Shown: positions 3,786 to 57,709 of the stretch, piece after piece
How the letters are laid out: the number at the start of each line of letters is the position of its first letter
How positions within the stretch are numbered: the first letter of the stretch is position 1
From: Owenia fusiformis
Lineage: Eukaryota > Annelida > Polychaeta > Sabellida > Oweniidae
Reading direction: 5' to 3'
DNA length: 64,000 bases
NCBI GenBank assembly: GCA_903813345.2
Contig: CAIIXF020000001.1
Coordinates: 1,922,001-1,986,000 of the forward strand
The notes under the pieces: generated by a model
The model's input: the letters and a program-made list of their open reading frames with translations, nothing else
Database searches by the model: none
What the model was told of the DNA's origin: nothing
Translations under genes and position numbers: made by a program

Positions 3786-6700
3786 ATGAGGGTTTTAATT
3801 TTGCTCTCAGGTAAGATAAGATTATCAATATTTTTTATGAAATAACAAAACTGTTAAAATCTTTAATTAATTATACAAAGATCATATGTGTATATGAGTA
3901 TACTATGAAAATAATTATTGCCTTTTATCTAAAAGACAACTTCAACTGGTGTTATTATAAAAGCCAAAATTCCAAATAAATACATGAAATTATAATAGAA
4001 GTAAATATGGTACATGGCATGTAAGAAAGTACCTTTCTTCTTTTAATTATTAAAAATATGTACATATCATCAGTAAACAAAATAAATTCAAAAAAAATTC
4101 TTGAAGTATACATATCATTCACTTATTTCTGCAATGTGCCACCTCATTTGATTTCATATAAGTGCAGTTACAATAGTATCAAAAATATTTCATTTTCAAT
4201 CATTTGATTTCCTAAAAGATTGTACACCTAATCAGTGAATTCTCAGAAATTTCATCTCACACACATAAATATGATGTTGGAAATTTTGATAATTTTTACA
4301 TAACCTTTGATTTAATTCTAAATTAGCCAAACCCTGGGCTTTGAAGAGAACAGAATAAAGTTGAATTTATAACTAAGAAAAATGCAAAATACCATACCAC
4401 TTACTATTTTTTGTGTTTAATTAAGGGACATGGGAAAACCATTAAAAAGAATGAGATAAAGCAAAAATACTTAAGTGATAGGAATTCAAAAACAATCAAT
4501 TGAATACTCTGTATTCACACATACTGAAATTAGCCTTGTTATGTAGTTTGTCCACATATTTTTGTTGTGTTTGTTTAACTAGTGATACTGGGCACCCAGG
4601 CTCAATTCTTTGGCCCAGGAATCGACCCAAATTCCAATGCCTTCCCAGGAAATGGTACTGATGATGAAAAGTGTGTGCAGTATGGTGCCTTGAGTTTTGC
4701 TGATTACTGGTGCAAGGATAGTTTGAATCGATGGAATAGTGCTATAATGAGCAACTCACTACAGGAGCAGACCCAGACTGATTATTCCAGTATAGTGACA
4801 GATTCTATGAGCGAATCAGAAGCTAAAGAAGCTCTAATTGAGGCAGTAGTTGATTATCTTGATACAATGATTTGTGGGTAGGTGTTATACATACAAGAAA
4901 ACCTTACTCTACTTGTTGAACCATTTAGCATATTATGAGCACTCCCAAAGATAATATCAATATGTGTTTATTTCTCATTAAGTTTTTCTTATCTTAGGTT
5001 CTATACCAAGACGAGAATAAGTTTATTGACAGTTCCTAAACTGAAATAAGTTAATATATGTCTTACTTCTAGAATCAAAACACTTGTTCGAGTCATTTTA
5101 TTTTCTTTGTGACACCTTTTGTTATAGCCTTGCCCAAGTCGGTATTTTTTACTTATCTGATCTTGAATTATTACCACCTTGTACAATCCAATACATCTCC
5201 GCTGTTATTATGCTGAAATATTCAACGGTTTCGAGATTTCCATTATACCTACGCTATCAGGGGTATCGCGAAACCTTATTGATTGACAGATAACGCGTGG
5301 ACACGACGTGTGACTTCAGGCTGAATGACCAATCAAAACGTTATTAGGTTGAGCTGCATAAACAAAACAAACTTCTCATCTACGACTTGAAATTCAATGA
5401 TCTGATCGAGTGTTTCTTTAGAGTTACAATATATTATGGAATTAAATGTACACTGGAAGGTAAGAGTCATTAATATAAATTAAATCATGCGATTCAATGT
5501 TGATTTAAAACTGATATCGCGATGAAAATGCAATGTAGCGGGTCATGTTGTCGATCGATCGGTGATTGAATCTCTACATGTTCAGCGATCGTTTCAACGT
5601 TTATTGTTGAAATCTTCTCACCTTTGGTTATCCGATCGATGTCCCGGCATCCACTAAACTCTCATTGATATTTATCTGATAAAATATTTGTATTTTCATG
5701 ATGAATTCGTGATCAGATTCGTGCAAGATTTGTTCGTGAAAAGTCCCGGTGAAAAGTGCACTTGTTTTTGACCTTGCATAATAATGAGCTAACGCTACAG
5801 GGCCGTTGTTGATTGGTCAAATTTTACCGACATCAACAAACTGTCGGTAAAGCACGTGGCTTTCTCTTTGGTACAAGGCGGTCATAATAGAAATCAAGAT
5901 AAGTAAAAGAGACCGACTTGGGCAAGGCTACTTTTGTTATTCAATTTAATATCATCACTAAAAAGGGATTTCACAATTTCATACACCTATATTTATAGAA
6001 GAATGGGATACTTGGATTCCACAGATGGGTCTGTGGCTCCATATGCCTCATATGCGGCATGTGTAACTGATGTAATGACCGAAGCAAATAACTGTGATGA
6101 AGAGAATGCATCCACTAAATTAATGTTGGCCAACTTAATTGGAAAAGCGGAATTTGCATGTAACAGTGATGGTAGCACAAAAACAGATGTTATACGCGAT
6201 GGTAATACCAGACAAGCTGTTCTAACTTTATTTCTGAATGATTCTTCCATCTTAACGTTATTTAGAAATAGTTTTGTAAAAGACAATATCTCTTTTCATA
6301 ATTCCAATGAATTTTGACACTTTCTTACTAACTCTCCAATGCTTTTTATCAGATATGTCTCAATTATTTTTGGCATGCTTTTTGAAAAAAAATACATTCT
6401 CTATCCCCTAAGATTCCTTCAATTAAGGAATAAAGACAGAGATCTTATGATTTATTGCGCAAAAATGATATATGACCAAACATTTAATCCTGTTCATTGT
6501 TATAAGACTGAAATCATGTAGCAATTACCTGTGACGTAACATATTGTAGCGGGAGCGCATTTTTCTTATTTATTTTCAAGTTTTATTTTCATGCTTTTCT
6601 GATCAAGATCAAATTATGTTTTATATATGGTTAAAAAGAACATTTTTTTAACAATTTATTCATTTTTATTTCATGCAAAAAGGAATAATAGTTTTTGAGT

Positions 6701-9700
6701 AAGACATGTTTAAATAACTAGTGTAAACGTGTGATTTTATTTAATTCATGGCCGCTTGGCACACATGATTTCAGTTCTTATTTACTCATGTTCTTTCTCA
6801 TTAAATATAGAGAAGAGTATTTGTCTGTAAATTATAATAATTATTTCTTAAATTAAGGGTGAATTGAGCTTTTAAACGGTGTATTAAACTTTGAATTTGA
6901 TCTCATACTTTAGGAGATATTGTAATTTAAAAAGAGTGATTTTCAGTCAAGTTTTATATTTCTGACGGCATTTTGCCGATACTTTTACAAACTTTCCCAC
7001 ATAGTAAATTGATTGACAGGCTAGCGCTAGGTTTATTAGTCTTTGATGTGACAGCTATTTTGACATTGTAGCAAGCTAACAGACCTGTTGTCATAGTTGC
7101 ACTTCCTTATATGGAAATAGATTGTCAAAAATATAAACTTTCTCATGATCGTTCGGGAGAACGATCAGTCTAGTTTTGAATGCTGAAGAGTAAGAACCTG
7201 CGATTACATTTTGGATTTATAACAGAATTGTATCATTGGATTTATAACAGATTTTGGATTTATATTGCTGTATTAAGTTACGCTGGATATTTGTGCCACT
7301 GGTGATCGTATTATTGTGGATTTATATTGAACATAACTGGATATATCTTGCGTTTACACGGAGATACGTTGTTAGCCTGAAAGTCGTTCAGCGCTGCTTG
7401 TGACTATGTATTCTGATATAAGGTAATTATTACAATAAAGTCTTGTTATTTGTTCATTTAAATTCACTGTGTCTGTTTTGATATAAACAAGTGAAGCTAA
7501 AGTGAGTCAATCTAGTCCACATTTACTGCTTAATTTCCATTGCAATTCAAGAGTGATAAGGGAAATAAATTCAATTTTACATCCTTCATTCAATCAATTC
7601 ACAGTCCATTGTTTCAAATATTCCATTTATTAGCATTCGCTATCACCAATTCTTTATCCCCAGTATTTCTATCAATCTAAACGTTTCGCATATTCATTAT
7701 TTTTATCCTTAATTCCCAGTGCTACTGTCAATTATTCCAATCTCATTACATTCATTTTTGCTACAATTTACAACATTCATATTTCTTTGTCTAAAGATTG
7801 GCCATATCTGTAACAAATTGCTCCTACCAAAACTGCTCCTTACGTTTTGCTCCGGAGCCAATTTCTCTTGTGTGGAGTAAAGAATTTATTTCAAAGAGGC
7901 AAGGTAGTGTAAGACTATTGCTATGTGACTTAATTGGTATAACCAAGGTAGTAGTAATTCATATGCAATAGGTACTTAATTGCTCTTAATTGCTCTCAAA
8001 GCTCCTGTTTTGCTGTTAAACTATTGATTTGGAGCATTGTGCTTTGCTCCGGAGCCCATTGAGAGCTCCTGCTTGATTGACTATTAATTTGGAGCCTTGC
8101 ATTTTGATCTGGAGCCTGCTTTGCTTTAAGGCTCATTGATTTATTGACTCATTGAGAGCATTACATTTTGCTCCGGAGCTTGTTATTGACTCTAATTGTA
8201 TTTGGAGCCTGACGGAGGCATTTATTTGAGCACTACATTTTGCTCCGGAGCCTTGCCAAGCCATTTGTTTTAATATTGCACTTTGCTCCAGAGCCTGTTT
8301 CTGGCTCCTTAAATAAAGAGCACTGCATTTTGCTCCGGAGCCTGCTGCTTGCTCATTTTGTGCATTGAGCTTTGTGGAGCCATTATTCTGAATATAGTAT
8401 TTTGCTCTGGAGCCCAAGTCGCTAGGAGCCTACCATACTCAGTGTTTATTACATTTTGCTCTTTTAGCCATCAAAGTGTGCTCTAATTGTTTCAGGGAGC
8501 TATGTTGTAGAATTTAAATATTGGCCAAACCTTTCATTATCATCATTCCTCATTCACATATTCCTCCAATTGAACTTGTTAATTTTACAAATAATCAAAG
8601 TTATTATATTTCCCTTGTCATTCTTTGTTATTCTACTTGTATAATATCAGTGGCAGAACGATAATTAAAATCAACACAACAAAATCCTTTCACCAACAGA
8701 CGTTCCCCGCCGGCTCTCATACCACGTGAGAGTTTTAAAGTGACACACGGGTTTCCGCTCGGCCCAGACGCCACGTTCCGTCACAATATCATATCAGATA
8801 TTGTCATTCCAGAAAAATACACAGATAGGTTGTGGAAAAATCAAAGTTTTTGTTAAAAACAGACATATGCTTATTGTATAGGGTCAAGATTGCAGTTAAA
8901 AATCCCACTGAGGACCATTATAACGTTTAATTTCATAATATATTCATGGGCACAAATCTAGCTCAGCGAAACAGTGCCCAGTGTTCATTGGAGTCTTGTC
9001 TAGCTTGCCGTTACAAAATAATGATACGGTGACCACACCGTTTTTGAGATTCAATCAAGAACTCAATCTGGAGAGAGCTACCACTGTAAAGCTACCTGTT
9101 TCAGAAAATTATTCTGCTCTACATAGTCTCCAAAATCACTCCGCCATCTCAAAAAATTCTGTTTCTAACAAAACTTGTAAATCTTTCCTGATATTTACCC
9201 TATCGAGAATAAACATTGATTCATTTATCAAACACTAGATAGCGCTGCGACGGGCCAGAAAAGGAGAAAAAGCTTTTTTATACAGGAAACCAAATAACCA
9301 ACAGTAACCGCTAGTATTCCTACTCCGAACTATATTCATATGGTTATGTATTTCCAGTCATGGCTCAAATGTACCCATTTTTCTACCAAAGTAATACATA
9401 TAACCTGACTACACTTGTTGAGCAAAAAGGGGTTGAAATGCCAGCATGTTTCGAAGATATGGACACTCTGATGAATCAGTTTATGGATTGTTATCCTGAC
9501 ATTTTCCTATTTGGTGGGGCAGATTTCTGGAATGATGCTCCTTCAGAAACTGCTAGTGAAATTATTCCAAAGATCAATAGGTATGCGTAACTTTATTTTT
9601 TGCATGGTTTTGTATGACAACTACTTTTAGTTTAGAACTCTTGCTTCCATTTGATTCAGCATTTAAGATTTGGGTTACATGGCCCAAGTCCTATTATAAG

Positions 9701-16622: not shown

Positions 16623-16628
16623 AATAAA
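16623..16628 (+). terminator. Candidate polyadenylation signal of the RGM-like gene
   Basis: AATAAA about 510 bases after the stop codon is the first canonical hexamer downstream on this strand. Confidence 0.45.
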
Positions 16629-19360: not shown

Positions 19361-19386
19361 TGAAGTAATCCTCTTCATTTTAGCTT

Positions 19387-33099: not shown

Positions 33100-34685
33100 C
33101 TTTTAGCATTGACTGCTTATTCCTATAGTATTGATTGTGCTTGTTGTTCCTATAGCATTGGTTGTGGTTGTTGTTCCTTTAGAATTGGTTATGCTTGTTG
33201 TTCCTACACTATTGGTTGTGCTTGTTGTTCCTATAGCATTGGTTGTGCTTGCTGTTCCTTTAGAATTGGTTATGCTTGTTGTTCCTATACTATTGGTTGT
33301 GCTTGTTGTTCCTATAGCATTGGTTGTGCTTGCTGTTCCTTTAGAATTGGTTATGCTTGTTGTTCCTATACTATTGGTTGTGCTTGTTGTTCCTATAGCA
33401 TTGGTTGTGCTTGCTGTTCCTTTAGAATTGGTTATGCTTGTTGTTCCTATAGCATTGATTGTGCTTGTTGTTCCTATAGCATTGGTTGTACTTGTACCTA
33501 TATTATTGGTTGTGCTTGTTGTTCCTATAGCATTGATTGTGCTTGTTGTTCCTATAGCATTGATTAATGATTGTGCTTGTTGTTCCTACACTATTGGTTG
33601 TGCTTGTTGTTCATATAGCATTGGTTGTGCTTGTTGTTCCTATAGCATTGATTGTGCTTGTCGTTCCTAAAACATTGGTTGTGCTTGTTGTTCCTAAAGC
33701 ATTGGTTGTGTTTGTTGTTCCTACAGCATTGATTGCGCTTGTCCTTAAAGCATAAATTGTGTCAATTGTTCCTATAGCTTTGGTTGTGCTTGCTGCTCAT
33801 TTAGAATTGGTCATGCTTGTTGTTCCTATACTATTGGTTTTGCTTGTTTCCAATAGCATTGGTTGTGCCTGTTGTTCCTATAGCATTGGTTGTGCTTGTT
33901 GTTCCTATACTATTGGTTGTGCTTGTTGTTCCTATAGCATTGATTGCGCTTGACCTTAAAGCATTAATTGTGTAAATTGTTCCAAAAGCATTGGCTGTGC
34001 TTGCTGTTCCTTTAGAATTGGTTATGCTTGTTGTTCCTATACTATTAGTCGTGCTCTTTGTTCCTATAGCATTGATTGTGCTTTTTGTTCCTATAGCACT
34101 GATTGTGCTTGTTGTTCCTATAGCATTGGTTGTGCTTGTTGTTCCTATAGCATTGATTATGCTTGTTGTTCCTATAGCATTGATTGTGCTTTTTGTTCCT
34201 ATAGCATTGATTGTGCTTGTTGTTCCTATAGCATTGATTGTGCTTGTTGTTCCTATAGCATTGATTGTGCTTATTGTTCCTGTAGCATCGATTTTGCTTG
34301 TTGTTCCTATAGTATTGGTTGTGCTTGTTGGTTCCTTTAGCATTGATTGTGCTTTTTGTTCCTATAGCATTGGTTGTGCTTGTTGCTCCTATAGTATTGA
34401 TTGTGCTTGTCCTTAAATCATTAATTGTGTCAATTGTTCCTATAACATTGGTGCTGCTTGGTGTTCCTATAGAATTGGTTATGCTTGTTTTTCTATACTA
34501 TTGGTTGTGCTTGTTGTTCCTATAGCATTGGTTGTGCTTGCTGTTCCTTTAGAATTGGTTATGCTTGTTGTTCCTATACCATTGGTTGTGCTTGTTGTTC
34601 CTATAGCATTGATTATGTTTGTTGTTCCTAAAGCATTGATTGTGCTTGCTGTTCCTATAGTGTTGGTTGTGCTTGTTCTTAAGGA
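33100..34685 (+). repeat. 27-bp minisatellite with 81-bp higher-order repeat
   Basis: About 58 copies of a 27-bp unit, GTGCTTGTTGTTCCTATAGC followed by ATTGGTT. Between about 33160 and 33440 three unit variants (ending TATAGC, TTTAGA, TATACT) alternate as an 81-bp higher-order unit, about four times. A further variant, GTCCTTAAAGCATTAATTGT, recurs near 33740, 33950 and 34410. Because 27 is nine codons and the unit has no stop in several frames, long frames such as VLVVPIALV or CACCSYSIG repeats appear on both strands. They are treated as artefacts, since no start context, splice sites or non-repeat domain accompany them. Confidence 0.92.
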
Positions 34686-35190: not shown

Positions 35191-36794
35191 TTCCATATAT
35201 AGACATTGAAATGTGTACCAAATACCATCGATCATTGCATTTCTGTAAATTTAATATAAAATGTTAAAGTGAGTGCAATATTTACATATTAACCACGTGC
35301 ATAGTAGCGCCCTCTGCAGTAGGTCATGATGACCAGTCCAGTCAAGCGAAAGGTGAGATAATCTTGTTATTTTATAGATTTTCAAAGTCGTCAGTTCAAA
35401 AATCAACTTTATTTATACCGTGTTTTCTAGAGGAGCTGTATTGCCATATGTACTTTATGACTATTCGTTATATAACAAACTGCAAAGCTGACATTTTTTG
35501 CTGATTTTCAGTTTTTGGAAATTGCATTTCTCCATTGATGAATTTTCAACCAAAACAAAATGAATTTTGTCACTATACAGTTTACAAAACCTGCTTCATT
35601 GTGACAGACGAGTTTTTAGATAACACATACACATAATAATGACACTAATTCCATGGACATGGGGAGTCACCACCCAATGCAACAACCCCCCCCCCTCTTC
35701 AGAAATTTCCAGGCCTGTAAACTTGGGAACGCCGGGGGGTTCACTATATATAAACCTTGACGTTACTCCCGTCGAGAGCTACTTAGATTTTGAAAGTATA
35801 GCTCTCTATCGCTAGAATCAACAGCTTAAGAATCCTGACTTCAAAGAAAATTCCGGGGTTAAATTCAGCTGACTCATGTTGCACATTATATACCTGAAAA
35901 TGTATCCTACATCGCCATCTTTCATTCAGCTCAACTATAGAATGTCTCACTGCCCTATGTATCGATCAGGACTTCATTTTATTGGTCGTTTCAAAAGTTT
36001 TGGCCAGGTATATTCAATATGGCGGCTTGACGTTTCCCAAGTTGCGCATGCGTCGATAATATTTCCGTTTAACCGCCATATTGGAAATGGGTATCAAACA
36101 ATGAAGATTAGAACTCCTGATCGCCATAGAAACACATCCGCGATCCTACATGCACGGGGAAAGTAGACACATATGAGCCCATATGTAGGCTACAGTTTGA
36201 GACAAACAGTAAGCCGCTGAATGGCGCTGATCAAATTTAGATGTCACAGTTCTTCAGCTGGAGATCCTCACGATGGAGAGCTATACTTTCAAAATCTAAC
36301 ATGGTAGCTCTCCACGTGAGTAACCTTGACGGGGATCCTCGGCGCATGTGGGGTACCTTTTTCAACGTTTGGTATGGCAATGAACCCATATTTTAGGATT
36401 TGGTATGGGAATGCCCAGAAATTTCTGACCTCTGAGGTATGGCAATGGTTGGACTTTTGCTCTTCTGGTATGAGAATGGTCGTTGTAGATACATTACCTA
36501 ACATTCATGGTATGGCATTGGTCCAGTAGTTGCAAATTTGAAGTTGTTTTGGATCGTTTCCCGAAGTATCTTCTTTTCCAGGGCCTTCTTCAACTTTTGA
36601 ATTTTAGCCCTTTTCCCGGGAAATGAGGACCAATCATAGGCTTTGATGAAGTCTCGCTAGATTTTTCGTGATTTCAATACAAAACTTGCCGCCAAGAAAA
36701 ATGGACGCTCGATTCGAAAAGTGGTTGATTTCCAACGATTTGAAGCTTATGGTAGCGATTGGTCCTGTATTTGCACATTTGTATGACATTGATC

Positions 36795-37660
36795 CTATAT
36801 TTCATTATCCCATCGAACGAAGTTCGGAGGGATATAGGGAACGCCTCCGTCCGTCCGTACGTACGTACGTACGTCCGTCCGTCCGTCCGTCTGTCTGTCC
36901 GTCCGGGCAATAACTCAAATACTGTTGGCCCGATTTTGTTGATATTTTGTACACATATACCCTATGGGGGTAGAAGTTCTGCTCGAAAGCCGATTTTCAA
37001 AATGGCCGCTCATTTCAAAATGGCGGCCATTTTAGTGCCAATTTTACAGTTATTTAGGTGCAATATGTAAAACTGTAATAGTAATATGTTTTAAATGTAA
37101 AAAAATTATAAAGGACATTAATAATGCTACAAATGTAGATATTAAAGAAGCACATGGCAGCCATCTTGAAAAATGGCGGCCTTTACTCGTCATTTTACGA
37201 TTTTTGCTGTAACTCAAAAAATAGTGGAGCAATTTTGTTCATATTTGGTATGTGAATACTATAAGCATTGCACACTGTCTAAAGACACTTTTGGTAGAAG
37301 GCGGCCATTTTCAAAATGGCCGCCATTTTAACATATTTTACTATAACTCGAAAAGTAGTGGAGCGATTTTGTTCATATTTGGTATGTGAATACTTTAAGC
37401 ACGGCACACTGTCTATTTCTAATGACACTTTTGGTAGAAGGTGGCCATTTTGAAAAATGGCCTCCATGTTAACGTATTTTACTATAACTCGAAAAGTAGT
37501 AGAGCAATTTTGTTCATATTTGATATGTGAATACTTTAAGCATGGCACATCGTCTTATAAAACTTTGGGGAGTAGTCAGCCATTTTGAAAAATGGCCACC
37601 ATTTTTATGTGTGTTATTTTACAAGTACGTGTGCGATTTTTTAAAAATTTTAGAGGTGGC
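36795..37660 (+). repeat. Dispersed TCCG-type repeat, copy 3, inside E2
   Basis: Begins TTATCCCATCGAACGAAGTT, then a CCGTCCGTACGTACG microsatellite (36848-36905), CAATAACTCAAATACTGTTG, and four successive related blocks, each with AAAATGGCGGCCATTTT-like sequence and TTTGTTCATATTTGGTATGT. The block repeats indicate internal tandem amplification with a period of roughly 125-190 bp. Confidence 0.75.
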
Positions 37661-37838
37661 TTCTTAAAAGCATATTATTCCTCCTGATGACAACTTGGCT
37701 AGTGAGCAACCATTTTGAAAATGGTGGCCTTTCTGGTGTGTTGTTTTATGATATTTGCTATTCGTTTGTAAAAATGCCAGCCATTTCTGTTCGATGGGAT
37801 TCGCTACGCTTTGGCGTTGCCGTTGTTCTGGTTTACTT

Positions 37839-38090
37839 TGAATTAAGGTATGGCATTGGTCCCATATTTGGACATTTGGTATGGCATTGGTCCTACATTT
37901 TGACATTTGGTATGGCATTGGTCCCATAATTGGACATTTGGTATGGCATTGGTCCTATATTTTTGGACATTTGGTATGGCATTGGTCCTATATTTGGACA
38001 TTTGGTATGGCCTTTGGGCGTTATTTTGGTTGGTATGGGAACATATTGAAATTTGACAGATTGGTATGGGAACATATTGATATTTGAGGC
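37839..38090 (+). repeat. GGTATGGCATTGGTCC tandem array
   Basis: Six to seven units of 30-37 bp: GGTATGGCATTGGTCCTATA followed by TTTGGACATTT. Related units occur at about 36370-36530, and inverted at 51285-51455. Confidence 0.8.
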
Positions 38091-38136
38091 TTCAGCCTAG
38101 GACCCCGTCGAGTTTTATATACAGTGAACCCCCTGG

Positions 38137-38324: not shown

Positions 38325-38861
38325 TTATCACATCCTACGACCCCTTTAGATTGTGGTCGTACGCGCATGTAATTGGTCAGTCAATGTTTTACAAAGTTGG
38401 ACACCTAAATGACCTACCTCGATACATTCCGTAGTATTTTAGAATTCTTATAATGTTGTTAGATCGCCAATTGTATGGGTTAATCGGCAGAACGAAGAGA
38501 TTTTAGTTTTTACATCGGAAATATATCAGCAATTTTCAAAATGTCGGAAGGGGAATTCCCCAGGGATTTCCCTTATGACTGGTGCATGCCGGGAACTGAA
38601 TGGAGGAATTTGACGGTTGAAATAAGTTAAATATTACACGCAAATATTGCTATCAAAAACGAAAACGTCTTCGTTCTGCCGATAAACCCATACAATTGGT
38701 GATTCAACTACAATAAAAGAATTCTAAAATACTAAGGAATGTATCGAGGTAGGTCATTTAGGTGTGCAATGCGTAGTATTTTCTCCAACTTTGTAAAAAC
38801 ATTGACTGACCAATTATACGCACGTACGACCACAATCTAAAGTGGTCGTAGAATTCGATAA
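38325..38861. mobile_element. 537-bp foldback element with 9-bp target duplication (E3)
   Basis: Ends TTATCACATCCTACGACC and GGTCGTAGAATTCGATAA are inverted repeats, extending about 170 bp per arm (for example GACCTACCTCGATACATTCC and its complement). CGTTTGGCC occurs directly at 38316-38324 and 38862-38870. No coding sequence. Confidence 0.88.
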
Positions 38862-40056: not shown

Positions 40057-41003
40057 GGGTTTTCGGAAAAGACCGACCCCACCGACCACCGACCGGTCGG
40101 TGTTTTCCACTGGTAGCCTCAAAACAGGGTTTGAAGAAAATGTGTAAAAGACCGACCATATCATGTAAAAGACCGAACATATTTGTAGCCTTAGAATATA
40201 AATAATTTGATTTTGGATGTCAATCGTTGGACTAGGCAACGTTTTTTACCGATTTTGTACCTTGCAACGAATGGCAAGCAAACAAATAGGTCATGACCGT
40301 CTCCTCTCGATTAATTGTCCTGCCTTAGGTCCTAACCTATCATTAACCAACCTATCGTTTCTACGGGAATCTATCCTAATTTTCTACTGAAATTTAACAA
40401 TTTCGAAACAAAAATGATTTGTTATCGTCATAGCCTACTGAATACTGAACACGATATAATGTTACATGCGTTCTCTTATCGGGATTAAAAGTGACTTACC
40501 ATTTCAGTACACCATTAGAAAGCTTTTTTTGTCATAGTCTATCAAATGTAGTTTTTACCAGTTGACGTTTAACAACTGAGAAATCAAACATAACGTTACG
40601 ACGTCAACATCGACGATGTTTGTGTGTTTTTGTTATTGCGTTTCATATGAATGAAGAATGAACTTAATGCAATGTTACGTGCGTTTTTTTCAAAGTGACT
40701 AACCAAGATGAAATTGGTCTTCTAACAACTGAAACATCACTTAAAAATATGACATTACACACCACGACGATGTAACGTTTTCATCGTGAGTTGAAATGAT
40801 AATTATATGTTTTTAAATCACGACCTAGTAAAGGTACTATAGTCATTGGATTCCCAGTTTTAGTTTTACTTCTAATTTTGCATTTTTTCATCTTTATGTA
40901 AAAGACCGCCAGCCGACCACCGACCACATGTACCCAACTGTGGAGAGTGACTGGTCGGTGGTCGGTGGTCGGTGGTCGGCGGTCGGTGTTTTACGAAAAC
41001 CCC
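40057..41003. mobile_element. 947-bp TIR element with 9-bp target duplication (E4)
   Basis: Left end GGGTTTTCGGAAAAGACCGA; right end is the reverse complement of GGGTTTTCGTAAAACACCGA. Next to both ends are tandem CCGACCACCGACC units (GGTCGGTGGTCGGTGG at the right). AATCAGAGG occurs directly at 40048-40056 and 41004-41012. The flanks, ATGTCAC on the left and TGGTGACAT on the right, form part of another repeat family (see 49306-50880). No coding sequence. Confidence 0.9.
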
Positions 41004-41726: not shown

Positions 41727-41736
41727 GTAAGTTTGT

Positions 41737-47900: not shown

Positions 47901-50900
47901 TTAGTGGTCTATTAGTAATATTTGAGACTTCAGGAGTGATGTATAATTGGTGTATTAGTGATGTATTAGTATTACATGCTCTATGATTGGTCAATAATTT
48001 TTATCTCATTTGCATGGTAATTTTTTCAACTTATAAACCACTGTTAAATCAATGGCAAAAAGTGGTCTGTTAACGAAAGTTACCACTAACAAATCACTTA
48101 TAGAACATGTTCTACTACTACTAGTTGAGTATTGGTAGTCTATTAGTGGTTTATTAGAGTGGTATGTCAAGCTGTTTTTTCACTTGGGTCATTTTGGACA
48201 CATTTAGTATTTGTTTTCATATTACACATACATATTTAACCTATATTGACTTGATCTTGGAACGATTATAAATTATTTATTGTCAGTTGAAAGAAAGACT
48301 GTTTTACCTAGTTGTTCTTCTCCATTAAAATCCTCTGGTGTTTCAAGGCCTGCTTCAACTGCTGCCTTGTATACATACTTTGTTCCCTCTAGTCTAGGTG
48401 CAGGAGATATATGTAGAGGTCCTGAGTGCCCGTGGTATTCTGTTACAAGAAATATGCACAGTATGAATTAAACATCATTTCTTGGATTTTACAACATATG
48501 CCTTTATAGATATTATGTATGTATTTGTTGCATGCCACGTTTTTTCTTTTAAAACAATCTACACAGCCCCGTAACCAGGATTTGCCAAGGGGGGTCACTT
48601 TTTAAAGAAATGTTATAATATCTTTATTCCTGACAGTTTCCCCTTTCTATTTCAACTAAAATCCACGTTAGAAAAATGGAAAATAAAGGTTTTCTTACTT
48701 GATTTCTTTAAATCTTGGTCTAGTTGTGTTTGAGATTTCTTAAAGTAAGGAAGCACGTCCTCATAACTCCATCCAGTGTTGCCCATCTCTGCCCACATAT
48801 CATAGTCATGCTTGCTCCCTCTCACATATGAATTAGCATTAATTGAACTGGATCCTCCTAAGACTTTTCCCCTCGCTATGTTTTGCACCTACGTACAAGT
48901 AAAATTTCAAAAATGACCACTGCATATATTGCTGTTTTACAATTTACGAGTACAAATGTACAGCCAAATATTTGATAGTCTGATTATCCCCCGGGGATTA
49001 TCCTAACATTTGTTGTCAGAATGATGGGAAATACAAATATTGAAAGTTTTCAACTTCAACAATAGATAATAATTTTCAATCATAAAAAATATTTTCAAAC
49101 TATGCACCGGGACTTTGCACTTGGCCTTGAAAGCTGTTTTCAAACTATGAGAAAGATTTGGCTCCAGTACAACAGTTATTTTCCCCTATTAATTTGCGAT
49201 AGGCATAAAAAGATTTCTAAAGATTTCATAGCAATATATTTATATTATGAATTGCTGCTGTTGAAAAGCTGTTCCACCTTGAAACTCCTTTTAACTAAGG
49301 TTATTATGTCACCACCAAAAGTGGTGACATATTGTTATGGTCTCCGTTTTTTTGCGACGGCGGTTGGCGTCCGGCGGTTGGAGGTTGGCGTCCGGCGGTT
49401 GGCGTCCGGCGGTTGGCGTCCGGCGTCTGTAACAATTTCTTACAACTTCCTATAACTTAACAAATACTGTTTAGACTGACTTCAATTTTTTTCTAAATCA
49501 TCTACATGTTCTCAGAAGTTCAAATCTGACTTTAGATTTGACATTTGACCTTCAATGACCTTCTCAAGGTCAAAAAGGTCTTTTTTCAACTTGCTTCACA
49601 TTGACTAAATTTTTTTTCAAAATCATCTACATGTTCTCAGAAATTCAAATCTGACTTTAGATTTGTCTCTAGATTTGACATTTGACCTTCAAACCTGACT
49701 TTAGATTTGACATTTGACCTTCAATGACCTTCTCAAGGTCAAAAAAGGTCAAAAAGGTCTGTTTTCAACTTGCTTCAAATTGACTAAATTTTTTTTTCAA
49801 AATCATCTACATGTTCTCAGAAATTCAAATCTGACTTAAGATTTGACTTAAGATTTGACATTTGACCTTCAATGACCTTCTCAAGGTCAAAAAGGTCTGT
49901 TTTCAACTTGCTTCAAATTGACTAAAAAAAATTTTCAAAATCATCTACGTGTTCTCAGGAATTCAAATCTGACTTTAGATTTGACTTAAGATTTGACATT
50001 TGACCTTCAATGACCTTCTCAAAGTCAAAAAAGGTCAAAAAGGTCTTTTTTCAACTTGCTTCAAATTGACTAAATTTTTTTTTCAAAATCATCTACATGT
50101 TCTCAGAAATTCAAATCTGACTTTAGATTTGACATTTGACCTTCAATGACCTTCTCAATGTCAAAAAAGGTCAAAAAGGTATTATTTCATCTTGCTTCAA
50201 ATTGACTAAATTTTTTTTTCAAAATCATCTACATGTTTTCAGAAATTCAAATATGACTTTAGATTTGACTTTAGATTTGACATTTGACCTTCAATGACCT
50301 TCTCAAGGTCAAAAAAGGTCAAAAAGGTCTTTTTTCAACTTGCTTCAAATTGACTAATTTTTTTTTCAAAATCATCTACATGTTCTCAGAAATTCAAATC
50401 TGACTTTAGATTTGACATTTGACCTTTAATGACCTTCTCAAGGTCATAAAAGATCTGTTTTTAACTTGCTTCAAATTGACCAAATTTTTTTTTCAAAATC
50501 ATCTACATCTTATCAGAAGTTCAAATTTGACTTTACAAGTTCTCTGAAGTTCAAATCTGACTTTAGATTTGACCTTTGACCTTCAATGACCTTCTCAAGG
50601 TCAAAAAGGTCTTTTTTCAACTTGCTTCAAATTGACTAATTTTTTTTCAAAATCATCTACATGTTCTCAGAAGTTCAAATCTGACTTTACATTTGACCTT
50701 CAATGACCTTCTCAATGTCAAAAAAAGTCAAAGAGGTATTTTTTCAACTTGCTTCAAATTGACGAATTTTTTTTTCAAAATCATCTACATGTTCTAAGAA
50801 GTTCAAATCAAACCTTCTTAAGGTCAAAAGGTATTTTCCAACTTGCTTTAAATTGACCAAATTGTTTTAGGTGGTGACATTTTGTCATGTTAATGCCTTG

Positions 50901-52096
50901 TATTTATGTGCAATAATACTCTATGATAAATTGGAGATATATTTTTCTTAAATCCATGAGAATCTTGCTGAATCTTTTAATCCTCGACAGCAGTGATTCT
51001 GTGGTATTGTCTTGTATTGCCAGTCTATCCTAGTGCCAAGGTTGAATAGGGCTCCTATGGGAAGAGAGGTTGTAGGGTACCATGCCTCACCAGCTTCTAA
51101 CAAGAGTACACTGGTGTGGGGATCCTCTGACAATCTGTTAGCTATGACTGCTCCGGCTGAACCACCTCCAACTGAAACATACGAGGGGCGAAGAAAATAT
51201 AGAAAGTAATCTTTCGTAAAGGTTTATCCCGGAGGTTCAATGTGTACAAAATTCAGCGAGGGTCATAGGCTGAACCTTCAGATATCCATCTGTTCCCATA
51301 CTAATTTGTCAAATTTTGATGTGTTTCCATACCAACCAATATAACGCCCAAAGCCATACCAAATGTAAGACCAATGCCATACCAAATGTTTAAATGTAGG
51401 ACCAATGCCATACCAAATGTTTAAATATAGGACCAATGCCATACCAATGCTATGATTGGTCAAAAGTAGAATATTTTTGGGGAAAAAACTAATATTTAAA
51501 CTGAAGCACCCTAGCGATCTTTGAGGAAAACGTTCCAAAACAACCTCAAATTCAGGATATGTGTAACTATGCACACCATCCCGGCCTCTCCCTTTTCTAA
51601 TATATCTCCAAATTGCTCAAACACAGTATGCAACCAATTAACATACTACAAAATTAAGAGTTCATTTTAGAGGGTAACCAACCCCCCCACCACCCGAACC
51701 TTAACTACTGTTGATTTACGCTGCAAAATGACCAGTTTATTCATTTTCATAAAAACTGCACCCCAGCTACCCCTTGAAGAAAAGTGTCTGACGGCCCTGA
51801 TGCTTGAATAACTATAACAGATATCTAGGTTACAGTAACTTAAAACAGTCAAAATAGTTCATAGAGATATTGTTTACAATCTTACTACCTCACTACTAGA
51901 TACATGTGACCTTCACTTTGTGAAAAAGATATGCATATATACTATTCAATGTTAAAATGAAATTAAGCTTACCTATTACATAGTCATATTCCTCATCCAG
52001 AACATCTCTTATCATAGAATCAATGTCTAAATTATCCTTTGTGAAATACAAATACACAGCTACAAGTGCAATGAAAGCTGAGAGTTTCTGCAGCAT
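41901..52096 (-). CDS. GMC-family FAD oxidoreductase (choline/glucose dehydrogenase-like), 11 exons
   Basis: Exons on the minus strand: 52096-51973, 51171-50969, 48888-48699, 48439-48308, 47518-47394, 46019-45852, 44740-44590, 44426-44278, 44108-43925, 43672-43447, 42036-41901. Phases agree throughout, giving 595 residues, the usual family size. Residues 1-20 form a hydrophobic signal or anchor. The FAD-binding fold starts at [19 protein letters not shown] (37-55, GxGxxG at 43-48). [12 protein letters not shown] (115-126) and [15 protein letters not shown] are the two GMC signatures, and PVGENLQDH follows. The C-terminal domain has [12 protein letters not shown] with catalytic-type His529, and [12 protein letters not shown] with Asn575. 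It probably oxidises an alcohol group (sugar, choline or similar) using FAD; the substrate cannot be told. The intron after residue 109 uses a GC donor. The other ten exons are joined by GT-AG. Introns hold SINE, hAT-like and tandem repeats. Confidence 0.93.
42080..42480 (+). repeat. Dispersed TCCG-type repeat, copy 4, in last GMC intron
   Basis: TTTATCCCACCAAACGAAGT, then GTCCATCCATCCGTTTGTTC, CAATAACTCAAATTACAGTT, GGGAGTAGGACCTCTGCTCG and two AAAATGGC(C/T)(A/G)CCATTT blocks. The closest relative is the minus-strand copy at 1790-2170. Confidence 0.8.
42781..42790 (+). repeat. G run in GMC intron 10
   Basis: Ten or more guanines; the exact length is uncertain, as for other homopolymers in this window. 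Confidence 0.7.
44785..45190. mobile_element. 406-bp hAT-like element with 5-bp duplication
   Basis: Ends CAGTGGCGGATCCAG and CTGGATCCGCCACTG, with CTTAT directly repeated at 44780-44784 and 45191-45195. The interior is made of GGGCCCAAATTTT-type units and a G run. The CAGTGGCGG end is characteristic of hAT elements, and a 5-bp duplication is known for one hAT clade. It lies in an intron of the GMC gene. Confidence 0.85.
45285..45310 (+). repeat. Single mariner-type end
   Basis: TACAGGGTGACACAAAAAAT resembles a Tc1/mariner terminus. No matching inverted end was found nearby, so this is at most a truncated copy. Confidence 0.35.
46590..46818 (-). mobile_element. tRNA-derived SINE, copy A (with A and B boxes)
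   Basis: On the minus strand the element starts GTAACGACCCTTGATAGCAA and holds a pol III A box, TAGCTCAGTCGGTAGAGCA (46741-46759), and B box, GGTTCAATTCC (46702-46712). The body runs to GGGGCGCCCTCGGGTCATTA. The tRNA-like part resembles tRNA-Lys with a shortened anticodon arm, so it is not a functional tRNA gene. It lies in an intron of the GMC gene. Confidence 0.88.
46942..47142 (-). mobile_element. tRNA-derived SINE, copy B (A box deleted)
   Basis: Same family and orientation as copy A, 120 bp away, with the B box intact (GGTTCGATTCC). The A-box segment is missing: AGAAGTC is joined to a short remnant before AAGCCACTACAGC. It should not be transcribable from the internal promoter. Confidence 0.88.
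47575..48185. repeat. Repeat rich in GTATTAGTGGT motifs
   Basis: Many variants of TATTAGTGGT, GTGGTTTGTAAGTT and TGTATTAGT occur in both orientations, with ATACTCAACTAATACACCAC near 47650 mirrored around 48120. It looks like a decayed inverted-repeat element in a GMC intron; boundaries are approximate. Confidence 0.5.
48565..48605 (+). repeat. hAT-like end, GTAACCAGGATTTGCCAAGG
   Basis: Shares CCAGGATTTGCCAAGGGGGG with the complete small element at 60078-60295. Only one end is present here, in a GMC intron. Confidence 0.5.
49306..50880. repeat. Repeat bounded by GTCACCACC ends with about 10 tandem units
   Basis: ATGTCACCACC at 49306 is inverted at 50870-50880 (GGTGGTGACAT). After a GGCGTCCGGCGGTT microsatellite (about 49365-49430) there are about ten tandem units of 115-190 bp: TCATCTACATGTTCTCAGAA, CAAATCTGACTTTAGATTTG, GACCTTCAATGACCTTCTCA, AGGTCAAAAAGGTC, TTCAACTTGCTTCAAATTGA. 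Units vary by internal small duplications. It occupies most of GMC intron 2. Confidence 0.88.
51285..51455 (-). repeat. Inverted copy of the GGTATGGCATTGG array
   Basis: AGGACCAATGCCATACCAAA units are the reverse complement of the array at 37839-38090. They lie in GMC intron 1. Confidence 0.8.
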
Positions 52097-52228
52097 GTTT
52101 CATACTTGAGCTTACTCGAGCAAAGTATAAAGTCCTCAAAGTGCACTCCTTAAAGGCCCCATATCAAGTTTAAACCACCTTGGCTTATATTGTAGTCTAA
52201 CCCAATGTTACCAAAATGTGATATGTGA

Positions 52229-53461
52229 GGGGTCAACCCAGTTGTCCGAAACCCAGTTGTCCGAAACCCAGTTTTCCGAAACCCAGTTGTCCGAAACCCA
52301 GTTCTCCGAAACCCAGTTGTCCGAAAATTAGGGGATCTTATTTGAAAAATACAATTTTTTTAAACGAATCTCGTTGTCGCAACCTCTGCGAATCACAACA
52401 TAACATTGGAATAACGTTGACATCATTGCAAAATTAGGCTAAATATGCGAAGTCAAGAAGTTAATTGTTTAAATGTTTAGCCTATGAAAGTTCATATACA
52501 GGTGATATAGATGTTCAAACAAACAAAGTTAAATTATGTTATTCTCATTGTAAAATGGCGTTTACACAACATACATAGATAGGGGTCTACAATTTTTAAA
52601 CCAATTTTCTTTATGGCCCATGGGCCTTTTTTGAGAGGAAACAACATTTTTCCAATGGGTGATGAGCGTTCATAAAAGGAAAAATAGCTTTCCCAAGCCA
52701 GTGGGTATTTATTTAGTAAAGTTGACATGTACATCTTTTGAAACCAAAACTTATTCTTCATTTACGTACTCTGTTCGAGAAATAGAGATTAAAAGGATGA
52801 AGTGAGTACATGGCGAAAATGAAACTTCTTGCGAATGGGAGAACATCCATTTTGATACGAGGACAGCCTGCCTTCGTTTCCAGTTGATCCCAAGTGATTA
52901 AGTTAAGAATGTTTTGTTCTTTTACGATTTGATAAAATACAGAGACTAAGAAATTAAATGCGACGAAATATTTTGACAACGTAATATGTATACTGTTTTA
53001 TTCTTAAAGTACTATATGCGTAAGCCTAAACTTATTTTATCTGTTTCAAAATGATTCATTTTATTTTGCCTATATAAAAGAGATTGAAGAAGATAAGATA
53101 AACTGTTCCGTAATATATATTGTGTTTTGATAACCTTTTTTTAGAATCACAATGTAAAATAAATCCCCCGTTCCTGCCATTCTGGTAACGCGTGCAATGG
53201 ATGCAATTCAAAGTGAGAGAGAGATCTATGAACATCAGAATGCGTCCATGCCATTAATTTGGCCAAATACATGGCATGAAACTGGCCTAAGCTTAGTACG
53301 GTTCCCCTTTCTCTGGTAAATTATGACTATATTTTTCGGAGTAATGGGTTTCGGACAAGTGGGTTTCGGACAACTGGGTTTCGGACAACTGGGTTTCGGA
53401 CAACTGGGTTTCGGACAACTGGGTTTCGGAGAACTGGGTTTCGAACAACTGGGGTGCACCC
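52229..53461. mobile_element. 1233-bp foldback element with tandem-repeat TIRs (E5)
   Basis: The left arm is GGGGTCAA followed by six units of the 15-bp CCCAGTTGTCCGAAA (52237-52326). The right arm is seven units of the complement (53346-53450), ending GGGGTGCACCC. GATATGTGA is directly repeated at 52220-52228 and 53462-53470. The 1-kb centre has no recognised coding sequence. Proline-rich frames over the arms (PKPSC repeats) are artefacts. It is upstream of the GMC gene start, 133 bp away, and could affect its promoter. Confidence 0.92.
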
Positions 53462-53915
53462 GATATGTGAAACGTTTTTTTAATTTTTTTTAATTTTCAA
53501 AAAGTGGTTTTTAAAGGACTTTTGTTCAAAAAATCATGAATTTATTTAAAACTAAATTTTATAGCTCAACATCTTTTAGTTTACTTCCTGCCAAAGCTAT
53601 GTGGATTTTGGTATAAAAGCTTTCCCACGGTGCACTGAACATTTGAATAATTGTGAACTTTAAAACATGAATAATGAGATCAGCGGCTTACTTTTGGTCT
53701 CTAACTGTGTCTTACATCAGTATCATCAATCCGTGCAAGTATTGGAGCACTGAAATACTTCTTTTTCGATCAAGACTTGTAGGCTTTGTATAAAAAACCT
53801 CCTACCTCATACCCACCTACCCACGTACGTTGGACATGATACAGTCTTTGAAGGGGTCAATTTTAAGGATCTTAGTTTATTAAATCTTAGTTTATGATGA
53901 ATTATGGATGCATTT

Positions 53916-54082
53916 GTAACGACCCTTGATAGCAAGTTGCTACTACAGGCAAGCTGGGTTAGATTCCCACTCGGGGCATCGAATTTAGCACACTTTCTTT
54001 CAATTTCTTTATCTGGCTTGTTGGACCTATGCTCTCGGTCGTTAGTTGGTTATTCCCCTGGGGCGCCCTCGGGTCATTGCAC
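53916..54082 (+). mobile_element. tRNA-derived SINE, copy C (tRNA part mostly missing)
   Basis: Begins GTAACGACCCTTGATAGCAA, then jumps after CTACTACAGGC to the B-box region (GGTTAGATTCCCAC) and the common body ending GGGGCGCCCTCGGGTCATTG. The A-box region is absent, as in copy B. Confidence 0.85.
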
Positions 54083-56432
54083 ATTACAATGCACCCATAT
54101 GCCTTTATTTATGGATCTGTCATCCGTCCGTTTTGACTCATTTCCAATATGTCCGAGCAGAAAACGCCATATTGGAATTTGGCAGAAAAAACATTCACTC
54201 GACTAACAATTACTATACCTGGTTTTTATTGATTGTCATTATTTTAATTAGGAGGTTACTGATGTTATGTAATCTATTAACAAAACATCCACAAAACACT
54301 AATTACCAGTTTCTATTCTTGTGATGTCTCAGGACCTTTAGTCTTGTATTCATACTAGAGTTCTCTATGCTAATTGCCAACATGTAAGAGAAGATACAAG
54401 GTTCTTTTATAACAAAATATTACACAAATTATATTACAAAATTATGAATAGAAGTACTTTTCAATATGTGATTGTTGTTTTATTTAATTTTATTAAGGGA
54501 GGAATTCAGATGTGAGTCACAATAAATCGATACTTTATTTTTCAATATTTTTTGAAAAGTGAAGTGATGTTTATCTGCCTGATGTGTTACCCCCATTGGA
54601 GAAAATAGAACACATGTGTTTGATGTACGGTAAAACCCATCTAATCTTACCTTCGTCTAAGGCTTCCACTGTATTCCAGTCTTACGCGAACCACAAATGC
54701 CTGCATGTTTTATTCTGCCGTATATGAGTCACGTCACGATCACAGAATTTGAAATCAAACCAGCCACCATTTTTTCACTTCACAATTTGAATTGTGAGTT
54801 TTGGTCTTATTACTTCACAAAAAATTTCAATACACAAGAAGTGATCACTATATTAATTCATAGACTATTCTTACAACAATTTTAAGAATATTTTTCAAAT
54901 TAAATTTTTTGTCTAAGGGAAAATTTTTCATAAGTTTACGGTGTTTCATTTGCCATGAAGTCTAGCCAAGTAATTTGGCTAGAGACCCAAGTAAGTCCAA
55001 TCAGATCACCAATGGATCAGCCAAAAGTGTTCAGGTTAACAGGTTTTCATAAAAAATGGGACTGAAAAAAGCATTCACGTTGAGAGCCTGAGGTCTTCAT
55101 ATTAGAGATATGGTCATCACCCCAAGGGGGTACTCCCATATATTTGCCATATGGGGACATGCCGCAAAAGTTTTACAGAAAAATCCCTAGATGTGGTTCC
55201 ATTTTGAGAAAAATCTCTAGAACTGGGTTTACTTTTTAAAAATTTGAAATTTAGTATTGTTCTTGAAAAGAAATCGCTGGAAGTAGGTCTTGTTTTTTAA
55301 AAATTACCTAAAGTGTCTCACATATTCGATCAAAATTTGCCATGCAAACATGTTAGTCTACTTTACTGGCCCCCCTTGCTGTAACAAGGAACCCAAAACA
55401 CATTAAAACGTAAACATAAACCAATTAGTCACTTCACTATGAAAGTGGGGGTGTTAGCAAATGTAATGTGTATTAGCAGAATACGCTGTGTGCATGGACT
55501 AACACAATATCAGTGGTCATTTACTGTATCAACTTAGTAACCCTTGCATATCGTGCTCACTCAAGTATTGAACAATTTTTTTATGATCTAAATGTTTGTT
55601 GTTTATAAAAAATGTGATAAATTTTAGTTAGAAATACATTAATTAATATATTTATTCAAACAGCACTAGAATGCGGGAAGAAAGAGCAATGGTGACAAAA
55701 TGCAGACAGAATTTTCCGTAAGGGTTTCAAACATTTCTGAACACAATCATACATGTACTTCTGTACTGTTATTTTTAGTGCTGTATTTATAGATATAATT
55801 TCACGTATTAAACTCATTTTTTGCAGCAATGACTTTAAATTCGGAACCACACCCATATCACATTTTCTTCAATAACTCCAAACATGTGTAAACATTGACC
55901 ATGTGCATATAAATTCAGATTTCACGAGCTCTTTCCTATTCGAGTACCTCATACACCCCTGCATGGATTTGAGTTGGATTCGCCTTTTATACGTGAGCCG
56001 ACACACTCGGAAACGCTGATTGGATAAAGATTGCGAGAATCTTTAAAGTAGGTCTATTTTTGAAAGAAAACCTTTTATATATAATTATGTAGGGCCATTT
56101 TTAGAGGAAAAATCCCTAGATATGGGTGGATATTAGTCACACACTATACTTAAATTGGTTAAACATAACATATATATTAATTTTAATGCACGTGAGTTTG
56201 ATTTCATTCGAATAAGCTATTATTAAAGGATTAACAAAACCACAAAATGCAATAACATTTTTCTTCCTTTTTTGAAAAAATAGAAAAATGACTAGTACTG
56301 TCAAAGATACTATATACATAATGGCACATAAAAGAAAATGCAGATTATTGTTAATTATTGATAAATATATATTGTGCTCTACTTTTACAATTAACATGCT
56401 GTGTCTCTGTGTGTTTATATGCAGAAACAGAA
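54083..56432. other. Intergenic with diverged repeats
   Basis: No gene recognised. Near 55010-55100 is a relative of the repeat at 17010-17200. Near 55125-55215 (GGGGGTACTCCCATATATTT, AAAAATCCCTAGATGTGG) and again near 56095-56130 (AAAAATCCCTAGATATGGG) are parts of a dispersed repeat, perhaps the two ends of one element. Confidence 0.5.
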
Positions 56433-56441
56433 TATAACAAG

Positions 56442-57700
56442 GAATGTTATAAAAACCCTTCGACCTTCGACCTGCACCTTCGACCTTCACCTTCGACTTA
56501 CAGGGTGTCCAAAAAGAAAATATTATAGAAGCTATTTTTGCCGATCTCAGACCACGCAAGAGTCACTTGATTTGTGGTTCACAGGTGAGATCATTAAGAT
56601 CTTAAATTGTGGCAACGTTTGCAGTACTCTAAGTTTAGTTACAGGGGTGAAATACAGGCCTGTCAACTTGGGAACACCTAACATGAGTGACTTGGAAATG
56701 TTGAACACCTCCCCTCAAAATGTGGACACCTTGGTCCAAATCTGAACACCTTGATCCAAAAATTTGAACACCTTGGTTTAAATCTTATTACATCTTGCCA
56801 AATTTTGAACACCTCAAATTTTTCGCGCTCGCTACGCTCACGTTTCAAATAACCGTCAACGGGGGGGGGGGGGGGGGGGGGGGGGTAGGTACGAAAAATT
56901 TCGAACGGATTGCGTGACAAATACGTAATTCGCGTGAAAAGTCCGAACGAAATGCGTACAATTTTTTTCCGCGTTCGTATTTTTCCTGTGAAGACGAACT
57001 TTTTTAGAAATTTTTCTACAGCAATAATTTTGCTTGACAATTACCAGGTAAAATGCGTATTTGCGTGACATTTTCTGTCACGCAAAAATAACTGGCGTGA
57101 CTTCAAATTCTTCAGCAAATGCGTGACAAATACGCAAATTGCGGGACAGTTGACAGGCCTGGAAATAGCGTTTTCATGTTATCAAATTAAGAATTAGTTT
57201 ATGTTGATCGGGTAGTCAATCGGGTAGTTTAAATGGAAGGTTCCCTTTTTAGAACTTACTTCCTGGTTTTGATTCGATTGAATCGAAGTAAAATTAGAGT
57301 AAGTAGCGATCAATTACTGTTCTATTTATTGAGTTCCAATTATAGTCTTGTTGTGTGATCAATATTAAAACGGGATATGGCGTCAATAACTTGTTATTTA
57401 ACTTTGAAATCTTGTCCGAAAAGTGATGACGTCACCAGGCCTATAAAGTATTTCGCCGATGTAAACTCAAGAGGTGACAGCTAGCTTTCGACGAGGACAG
57501 AGCTCCGTTCAATTTCATAATCTATGTGAAGTTGGACTTTCAAAGAAATATTTTTGGACTTTGACAATTTTCATAAGAAAAGTGGTGCAGGTCGAAGGGT
57601 TTTTATAACTTTCTTTTTGGCCCGCTTTTTGGGCACCCTGTAGGTCGAAGCTGAAGGTCGAAGGTGCAGGTCGAAGGTCGAAGGGTTTTTATAACATTCC
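56442..57700. mobile_element. 1259-bp TIR element with 9-bp target duplication (E6)
   Basis: Both ends are GGAATGTTATAAAAACCC (inverted) followed by CTTCGACCT tandem units and a TACAGGGTGTCCAAAAAG-like block. ATATAACAA is directly repeated at 56433-56441 and 57701-57709. Inside are an older repeat (56655-56790, AGGCCTGTCAACTTGGGAAC), a 25-base G run (56861-56885) and a copy of the 145-bp repeat seen at 39690-39840. No transposase. Confidence 0.9.
56861..56885 (+). repeat. G25 homopolymer
   Basis: A run of 25 guanines inside E6. The proline-rich frames opposite it have no other support. Confidence 0.85.
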
Positions 57701-57709
57701 ATATAACAA

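What the first reader, a model, noticed from the sequence alone, without database searches (positions are those of the whole stretch)
5116..57709. Six different inverted-repeat elements, all with perfect 9-bp target duplications
Elements at 5125-5930, 35734-38136, 38325-38861, 40057-41003, 52229-53461 and 56442-57700 have different termini, yet each is flanked by an exact 9-bp direct repeat (CTTTTGTTA, GGGAACGCC, CGTTTGGCC, AATCAGAGG, GATATGTGA, ATATAACAA). The chance of a random exact 9-mer match at a predicted boundary is about 1 in 262,000 each. A common duplication length suggests one transposase type mobilising several noncoding families. MULE-type transposases make 8-11 bp duplications, so that is the first candidate, but none is encoded here.
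Basis: partly seen in the sequence, partly recalled or inferred. Interest (0 to 1): 0.8.

Follow-up and report, generated by a model that had tools for sequence, protein, structure and literature searches.

The report
Several ordinary Mutator-like nonautonomous transposon families
The six elements are copies of abundant noncoding jumping-gene families, at least some of which most likely borrow a Mutator-type transposase encoded elsewhere in the genome, an arrangement already described in mosquitoes and root-knot nematodes.

Summary
All six intervals are flanked by the stated exact 9-mers, and all belong to repeat families. Boundaries shift by one base at E4 and E6. E2 is a composite holding two nested elements.

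In 20 genomic copies per family, exact duplications at conserved ends are 9 bp in 16/20 (E1), 16/20 (E4), 15/19 (E5) and 16/20 (E6). E3 is mixed: 8 bp in 9/20, 9 bp in 5/20. Swapped flanks gave 0/380 per family. E2's duplication fits a related empty site.

Few MULE transposase genes were found. Of 22 fetched MULE loci, eight have the gene framed at both ends by inverted arrays of 15-16-bp tandem repeats, six of them with 8-9-bp duplications. This is E5's architecture. One broken MULE locus has an E5-like cap and array on one side. It matches published Phantom/Muta and Tm1 elements. E5 is most likely a nonautonomous MULE; E2, E4 and E6 probably are; E1 and E3 are compatible but unlinked. No transposase gene was found between ends matching any of the six, so "one transposase" is unproven. 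An apparent E3-MULE link was tested and rejected. New members of a known kind.

The parts
5125..5930 (.). E1: noncoding inverted-repeat element, about 60-bp TIR starting TAGCCTTGCCCAAGTCGG; duplication CTTTTGTTA
   Evidence: 9-bp exact duplication in 16 of 20 copies, 10 bp in 1
35734..38136 (.). E2: composite element, TIR starting G-rich then GTTCACTRTATATAAA, inserted in an element that starts CAGGCCTGT at 35710; duplication GGGAACGCC
   Evidence: a second copy in L147 has the same right end to within about three bases; duplication checked in this one copy, against a related empty site
35763..36323 (.). M2: element nested in the E2 left terminal repeat, ends TTACTC...GAGTAA, 8-bp duplication CCTTGACG
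   Evidence: (8 bp in 8 of 10 copies)
36804..37833 (.). N2: about 1,030-bp repeat without target duplication nested in E2
   Evidence: 0 of 10 copies with an exact repeat over 2 bp at the boundary
38325..38861 (.). E3: near-palindromic element, TIR about 187-207 bp starting TTATC; duplication CGTTTGGCC here, 8 or 9 bp elsewhere
   Evidence: 8 bp in 9 of 20 and 9 bp in 5 of 20 copies
40057..41002 (.). E4: element with ends GGGTTT...AAACCC and subterminal 7-bp repeats; 10-bp duplication CAATCAGAGG in this copy
   Evidence: 9 bp in 16 of 20 copies, 10 bp in 1
52229..53461 (.). E5: foldback-like element; caps GGGGTCAACCC and GGGTGCACCCC followed by 6 and 8 tandem units of CCCAGTTGTCCGAAA; duplication GATATGTGA
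   Evidence: 9 bp in 15 of 19 copies, 8 bp in 2
52235..52326 (+). E5 left array of 15-bp tandem units
53334..53453 (-). E5 right array of 15-bp tandem units
56441..57700 (.). E6: element with 75-bp TIR starting GGAATGTTATAAAAACCC and short CCTTCGA-type tandem repeats; duplication ATATAACAA
   Evidence: 9 bp in 16 of 20 copies
56655..57161 (.). element nested in E6, ends CAGGCCTGTCAACT, 6-bp duplication GAAATA

Best explanation
The six elements are nonautonomous cut-and-paste transposons. At least E5, and probably E2, E4 and E6, are mobilised in trans by Mutator-like (MULE) transposases of the Phantom/Muta type encoded elsewhere in the genome. The inferred mechanism is that a transposase with an N-terminal zinc finger binds the terminal or subterminal repeats, excises the element and inserts it through an 8-9-bp staggered cut, whose repair leaves the duplication. 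Shown: repeated copies with conserved ends and 8-9-bp duplications, and MULE genes sitting between E5-like tandem-repeat termini with the same duplication lengths. Inferred: that these transposases act on these particular elements. E1 and E3 fit the duplication length but have no sequence link.
For: Conserved ends and duplications in 20 copies per family with 0 of 380 swapped-flank matches. MULE loci: open frames of 599 and 617 aa with MULE and FLYWCH domains above the Pfam cut-offs. Inverted 15-16-bp arrays framing the gene at 8 of 22 fetched MULE loci (L121, L122, L124, L125, L127, L128, L130, L139), with 8-9-bp duplications at 6 of those 8. L137, a broken MULE gene, carries the cap GGGGATAACCCC and a 15-bp array like E5's in the same orientation; the unit-permutation control reached the score in 6 of 2000 (right end) and 16 of 2000 (left end). 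E5 array length varies between copies and between ends, 5-8 and 4-11 units in 20 copies. Published precedents: Muta1 and Muta5 (PMC5225508) and Tm1 (PMC3169594).
Against: No MULE gene was found between ends that match any of the six families (28 loci, 164,127 bases). The E5 resemblance at L137 is one-sided, in a decayed locus whose other end was not found. Eight of 22 MULE loci show no such arrays, including L126 with an open frame of 631 aa. Two of the eight framed loci (L121, L128) have no duplication. E1 and E3/M2 begin TAGCC and TTA rather than G. The unit of the intact 16-bp MULE arrays resembles E5's only in the opposite orientation.
Confidence: 0.75

Rival explanations
1. Several unrelated superfamilies are present: E2, E4, E5 and E6 are MULE-driven, while E1 and/or E3 and M2 use another transposase (Merlin, P, hAT or an undescribed one) that happens to duplicate 8-9 bp.
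For: E1 begins TAGCC and E3/M2 begin TTA, unlike the G-rich ends of the others; E3 is mixed 8/9 and M2 is 8 bp. Merlin-type domain fragments exist in the genome.
Against: The four fetched Merlin-domain loci carry no E1, E3 or M2 ends. A mixed 8/9-bp duplication is documented for an active MULE, Muta1 (PMC5225508). hAT and P normally make 8 bp (recalled).
Confidence: 0.35
2. A single transposase mobilises all six noncoding families.
For: Similar duplication lengths across families.
Against: The termini differ; the genome has several diverged MULE lineages with different array units; E3 differs in duplication length.
Confidence: 0.08
3. The E3 family derives from the FLYWCH-MULE at L123 (contig C7), because an E3-like terminus lies about 800 bp downstream of it.
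For: An 86% identical E3 terminus at L123:5554-5616.
Against: The segment with that terminus, including about 34 bases beyond the supposed end, recurs at 95-96% in three other places that do not match the upstream part, and a sister copy of the upstream part lacks the segment. No left terminus was found in L123 or L133.
Confidence: 0.04
4. The 9-mer matches are chance or a simple-repeat artefact.
For: None found.
Against: 0 of 380 swapped-flank pairs per family against 14-17 of 19-20 true pairs.
Confidence: 0.005

Closest known systems
Muta families of Aedes aegypti, Phantom group MULEs (PMC5225508: search listing, passages and one section seen)
   Same: FLYWCH plus MULE-domain transposase, 8- or 9-bp duplications, TIRs with a short terminal motif (in Muta1 a 10-bp imperfect palindrome) and 9-15-bp subterminal tandem repeats, hundreds of nonautonomous derivatives with variable unit numbers.
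Tm1 Mutator/Foldback family of root-knot nematodes (PMC3169594: abstract, one whole section and part 1 of 2 of the discussion seen)
   Same: Different short motifs at the two ends, mostly 14-bp tandem units varying in number between elements and between ends, 9-bp duplications, MITE-like noncoding members beside a rare FLYWCH-MULE copy.
   Different: Low copy and seemingly senescent in nematodes; here the rough first-look counts run from several hundred to over two thousand per family.
Rehavkus (table and passages of PMC6446971 seen)
   Same: 9-bp duplication, PHD-type finger, minisatellite, reported from arthropods and annelids.
   Different: The transposases here also carry a FLYWCH finger; the PHD match is below Pfam's cut-off; no tree against Rehavkus was made.

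Membership tests
MULE superfamily (E5) | 8-11-bp target duplication | tested here: met
   9 bp in 15 of 19 copies, 8 bp in 2
MULE superfamily (E5) | terminal inverted repeats shared with a MULE transposase gene | tested here: inconclusive
   one-sided similarity to the array at the broken MULE locus L137; caps within four mismatches over 20 bases absent from all 28 loci checked
Phantom/Muta-type foldback MULE (E5) | TIR made of short tandem units behind a palindromic terminal motif | tested here: met
   15-bp units, 5-8 and 4-11 per end, 10-base caps palindromic at 10 of 10 and 8 of 10 positions
Phantom/Muta-type MULE (transposase loci of this genome) | FLYWCH and MULE domains in one protein | tested here: met
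   both above the curated cut-offs in L125 and L122
Phantom/Muta-type MULE (transposase loci of this genome) | grouping with Phantom in a transposase tree | not tested
MULE superfamily (E4, E6) | 8-11-bp target duplication and conserved inverted ends | tested here: met
   9 bp in 16 of 20 copies each; E4 10 bp in one more
MULE superfamily (E2) | 8-11-bp target duplication | tested here: met
   one copy only, against a related empty site
MULE superfamily (E1) | 8-11-bp target duplication | tested here: met
   9 bp in 16 of 20 copies, 10 bp in 1
MULE superfamily (E3) | 8-11-bp target duplication | tested here: met
   8 bp in 9 of 20, 9 bp in 5 of 20 copies
MULE superfamily (E1, E2, E3, E4, E6) | ends shared with a MULE gene | tested here: inconclusive
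   no such locus among those fetched; the E3 case was rejected; the search was far from exhaustive, so this does not exclude membership
Merlin (E1, E3, M2) | ends shared with an IS1595-type transposase gene | tested here: inconclusive
   four loci found and fetched, none with these ends; the genome search may miss weak matches
hAT (E3) | constant 8-bp duplication (recalled) | tested here: not met
   mixed 8 and 9 bp

The most novel reading that the evidence does not exclude
E1 (9 bp, TAGCC ends) and E3/M2 (8-9 bp, TTA ends) are mobilised by a transposase lineage not yet described, or a handful of Phantom-like transposases cross-mobilise several noncoding families with unrelated ends, so that hundreds to thousands of copies are driven by a few genes.
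Probability: 0.12. Interest if true: 0.55.

Novelty: new member of a known kind. Interest (0 to 1): 0.3.

Why it matters
It places Mutator/Foldback-type transposons with tandem-repeat ends, described from mosquitoes and nematodes, in another genome, perhaps an annelid's (identity untested), where noncoding copies appear to outnumber the transposase genes by far. It also gives a set of transposase loci with defined ends in which end recognition by short tandem units could be tested. It does not change the known picture of MULEs.

Tried and rejected
E3-MULE link at L123: looked good but was rejected, where the terminus lies in a separate duplicated segment. Merlin as source of E1/E3/M2: four weak loci, none with matching ends. 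Resemblance of the E5 unit to the 16-bp units of L122/L127-type MULEs: only in the opposite orientation, so not used. The E5-like array at L121 lies in the opposite orientation, so it counts only as weak support. L140-L143, relatives of the L137 MULE, have no inverted terminal arrays; L142 has only a short three-unit array on one side. A MULE coding trace inside the window: none found. PMC13359780 (passages) added nothing.

L135 does not belong there: its two long arrays lie beside the gene fragment, with a third, short array on the other side. L129 has a two-unit array at one side of its gene fragment and a long one at the other. Both are set apart as disturbed. L138's array has the wrong orientation to be an end of its MULE. 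L132 gained an array on one side.

Rows dropped or kept: E5 copy L080 was dropped (both caps not found). E6 copies L085 and L089 lack the first part of the element but stay as misses in 16 of 20. Three weak MULE places (C3 near 0.27, 1.64 and 1.81 Mb) were not fetched. In one search M2 was run with its right end one base short; the 8 of 10 count is. Divergence figures are biased low, because the copies were the best matches of each search, and are not used.
Full report
What the window holds. The window is G000:C1:1922001-1986000 of a 498-Mb assembly in 525 contigs; twelve contigs that I met are 32-62 Mb long. Size and number fit the annelid Owenia fusiformis (505.8 Mb, 12 chromosome-scale scaffolds; passages of PMC9977687), but identity was not tested. 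Only eight matches to the Pfam MULE domain were found, which argues against a plant (inference).

All six are repeats. Whole-element searches scored 40 candidates each out of rough first-look counts of 1463 (E1), 5330 (E2, whose listed matches are to its nested part), 1006 (E3), 507 (E4), 693 (E5) and 2210 (E6). Many scored copies of E1, E3, E4 and E6 run to the ends of the window copy; those of E5 end at varying places within the terminal arrays. For E2, the lists held only its nested parts; a second E2 copy with the same right end, to within about three bases, turned up in L147.

Target duplications. I fetched 20 copies each of E1, E3, E4, E5 and E6, and 10 each of the nested M2 and N2. Exact direct repeats at the conserved ends were: E1 9 bp in 16 of 20 and 10 bp in 1; E3 8 bp in 9 and 9 bp in 5 of 20; E4 9 bp in 16 and 10 bp in 1 of 20; E5 9 bp in 15 and 8 bp in 2 of 19; E6 9 bp in 16 of 20. 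M2 gave 8 bp in 8 of 10, and N2 no exact repeat over 2 bp at its boundary in 10 of 10. Of the 18 misses in the five large sets, 13 differ by only one or two bases in eight or nine (the two of E5 judged by eye). Swapping flanks between copies gave 0 of 380 matches of 8 bp or more in each of the five families. The duplications are genuine, but the length is not uniform: E3 is 8-9 bp.

Nesting. E2 sits in an element that begins CAGGCCTGT at 35710. With one copy of GGGAACGCC removed, the joined flanks align to the start of the related element nested in E6, so the 9-bp duplication fits a related empty site. M2 lies in E2's left terminal repeat with an 8-bp duplication, and N2 lies inside E2. The element nested in E6 has a 6-bp duplication, confirmed on an uninterrupted E6 copy.

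The transposase question. No MULE coding sequence was found in the window. A protein search with the 599-aa MULE of L122 gave 37 matches in about twenty places, and a second search with a fragment of L137 led to four more. I fetched 22 MULE loci (L121-L132, L134-L143 without extensions). In eight the gene lies between inverted arrays of 15-16-bp tandem units (L121, L122, L124, L125, L127, L128, L130, L139; the right array of L130 and the left of L121 are only two and three units long). Two are disturbed, with arrays on both sides of a gene fragment (L129, L135). Three have an array on one side (L132, L136, L137). One has an array in the wrong orientation (L138). Eight show none (L123, L126, L131, L134, L140-L143). 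Of the eight framed loci, six have exact 8-9-bp direct repeats outside the ends (L122, L127 and L130 9 bp; L124 and L139 8 bp; L125 8 or 9), and two have none (L121, L128). The proteins of L122 and L125 have MULE and FLYWCH domains above Pfam's cut-offs; L125 also has a weak N-terminal PHD-finger match below the cut-off, nearest by sequence among solved structures to Pygopus PHD-finger entries, E 0.004.

E5 and the MULEs. E5 has the same plan: a short palindromic cap, different at the two ends, then a variable number of 15-bp units (5-8 at one end, 4-11 at the other in 20 copies including the window's). Its unit is not that of the 16-bp arrays of the intact MULE loci; resemblance there is in the opposite orientation. 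The decayed MULE locus L137 has the cap GGGGATAACCCC and an array resembling E5's in the same orientation, a resemblance reached by 6 of 2000 unit-permuted controls for the right end and 16 of 2000 for the left. This is one locus with one end, so the link is good but not conclusive. E5-related arrays are common in this genome, so a chance neighbour is not excluded.

The other families. E4 and E6 have G-rich ends, short subterminal repeats (7 bp; 7 and 13 bp) and 9-bp duplications, which fits MULEs, but no MULE gene was found between such ends. E2 has a G-rich end and a 9-bp duplication, checked in one copy. E1 and E3 have no sequence link. An E3-like terminus near the L123 MULE proved to belong to a separate duplicated segment. 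The four Merlin-type loci do not carry E1, E3 or M2 ends.

Comparison with the literature. The 14 Muta families of Aedes aegypti have 8-9-bp duplications, ten of twelve long-TIR families have 9-15-bp subterminal tandem repeats, 13 have a FLYWCH finger and all but one have nonautonomous derivatives (section read, PMC5225508). Muta1 in yeast made 8-bp duplications in 21 and 9-bp in 39 events, and has a 10-bp imperfectly palindromic terminal motif (passages). Tm1 of root-knot nematodes has composite tandem-repeat TIRs, unlike motifs at the two ends, 9-bp duplications and MITE-like members (abstract, one section, and part 1 of 2 of the discussion, PMC3169594). A table in PMC6446971 lists Rehavkus from arthropods and annelids with 9-bp duplications and a PHD finger (passages). 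The finding is therefore a new set of members of a known kind. A search for annelid, MULE, terminal inverted repeats and target site duplication returned four papers (listing only, apart from the passages of PMC6446971), so I make no claim that these families are unpublished.

Verdict. The claim of one common duplication length and one transposase for all six is too strong.

Noticed in passing
56655-57161 and 35710 onward: A family with ends CAGGCCTGTCAACTT and a 6-bp duplication (GAAATA in E6); one copy is nested in E6, another is the host of E2. A 6-bp duplication recalls IS3EU (recalled, untested).
   Followed up: partly
36804-37833 (N2): High-copy repeat with (TCCG)n and 141-bp internal tandem units and no target duplication in 10 of 10 copies; recalls Helentron/DINE-type elements (recalled, untested).
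   Followed up: partly
33120-34677: Array of about 58 copies of a 27-bp unit.
   Followed up: no
49696-50808: Satellite-like array with periods of about 148 and 284 bp.
   Followed up: no
L125:2920-4770 and L122:3410-5206: Open frames of 617 and 599 aa combining FLYWCH and MULE domains, with a weak PHD match in L125: fingers that PMC6446971 lists for Phantom and for Rehavkus respectively.
   Followed up: partly
L126, L127, L128: Three MULE loci share a 31-bp internal minisatellite (TTAGACATTTTGAGCAAGATTTAGGAAGGCA or its complement with variants).
   Followed up: no
L145:2118-3625: A nearly 500-bp inverted repeat with 88% identical arms in a locus with a weak IS1595-type domain match.
   Followed up: no
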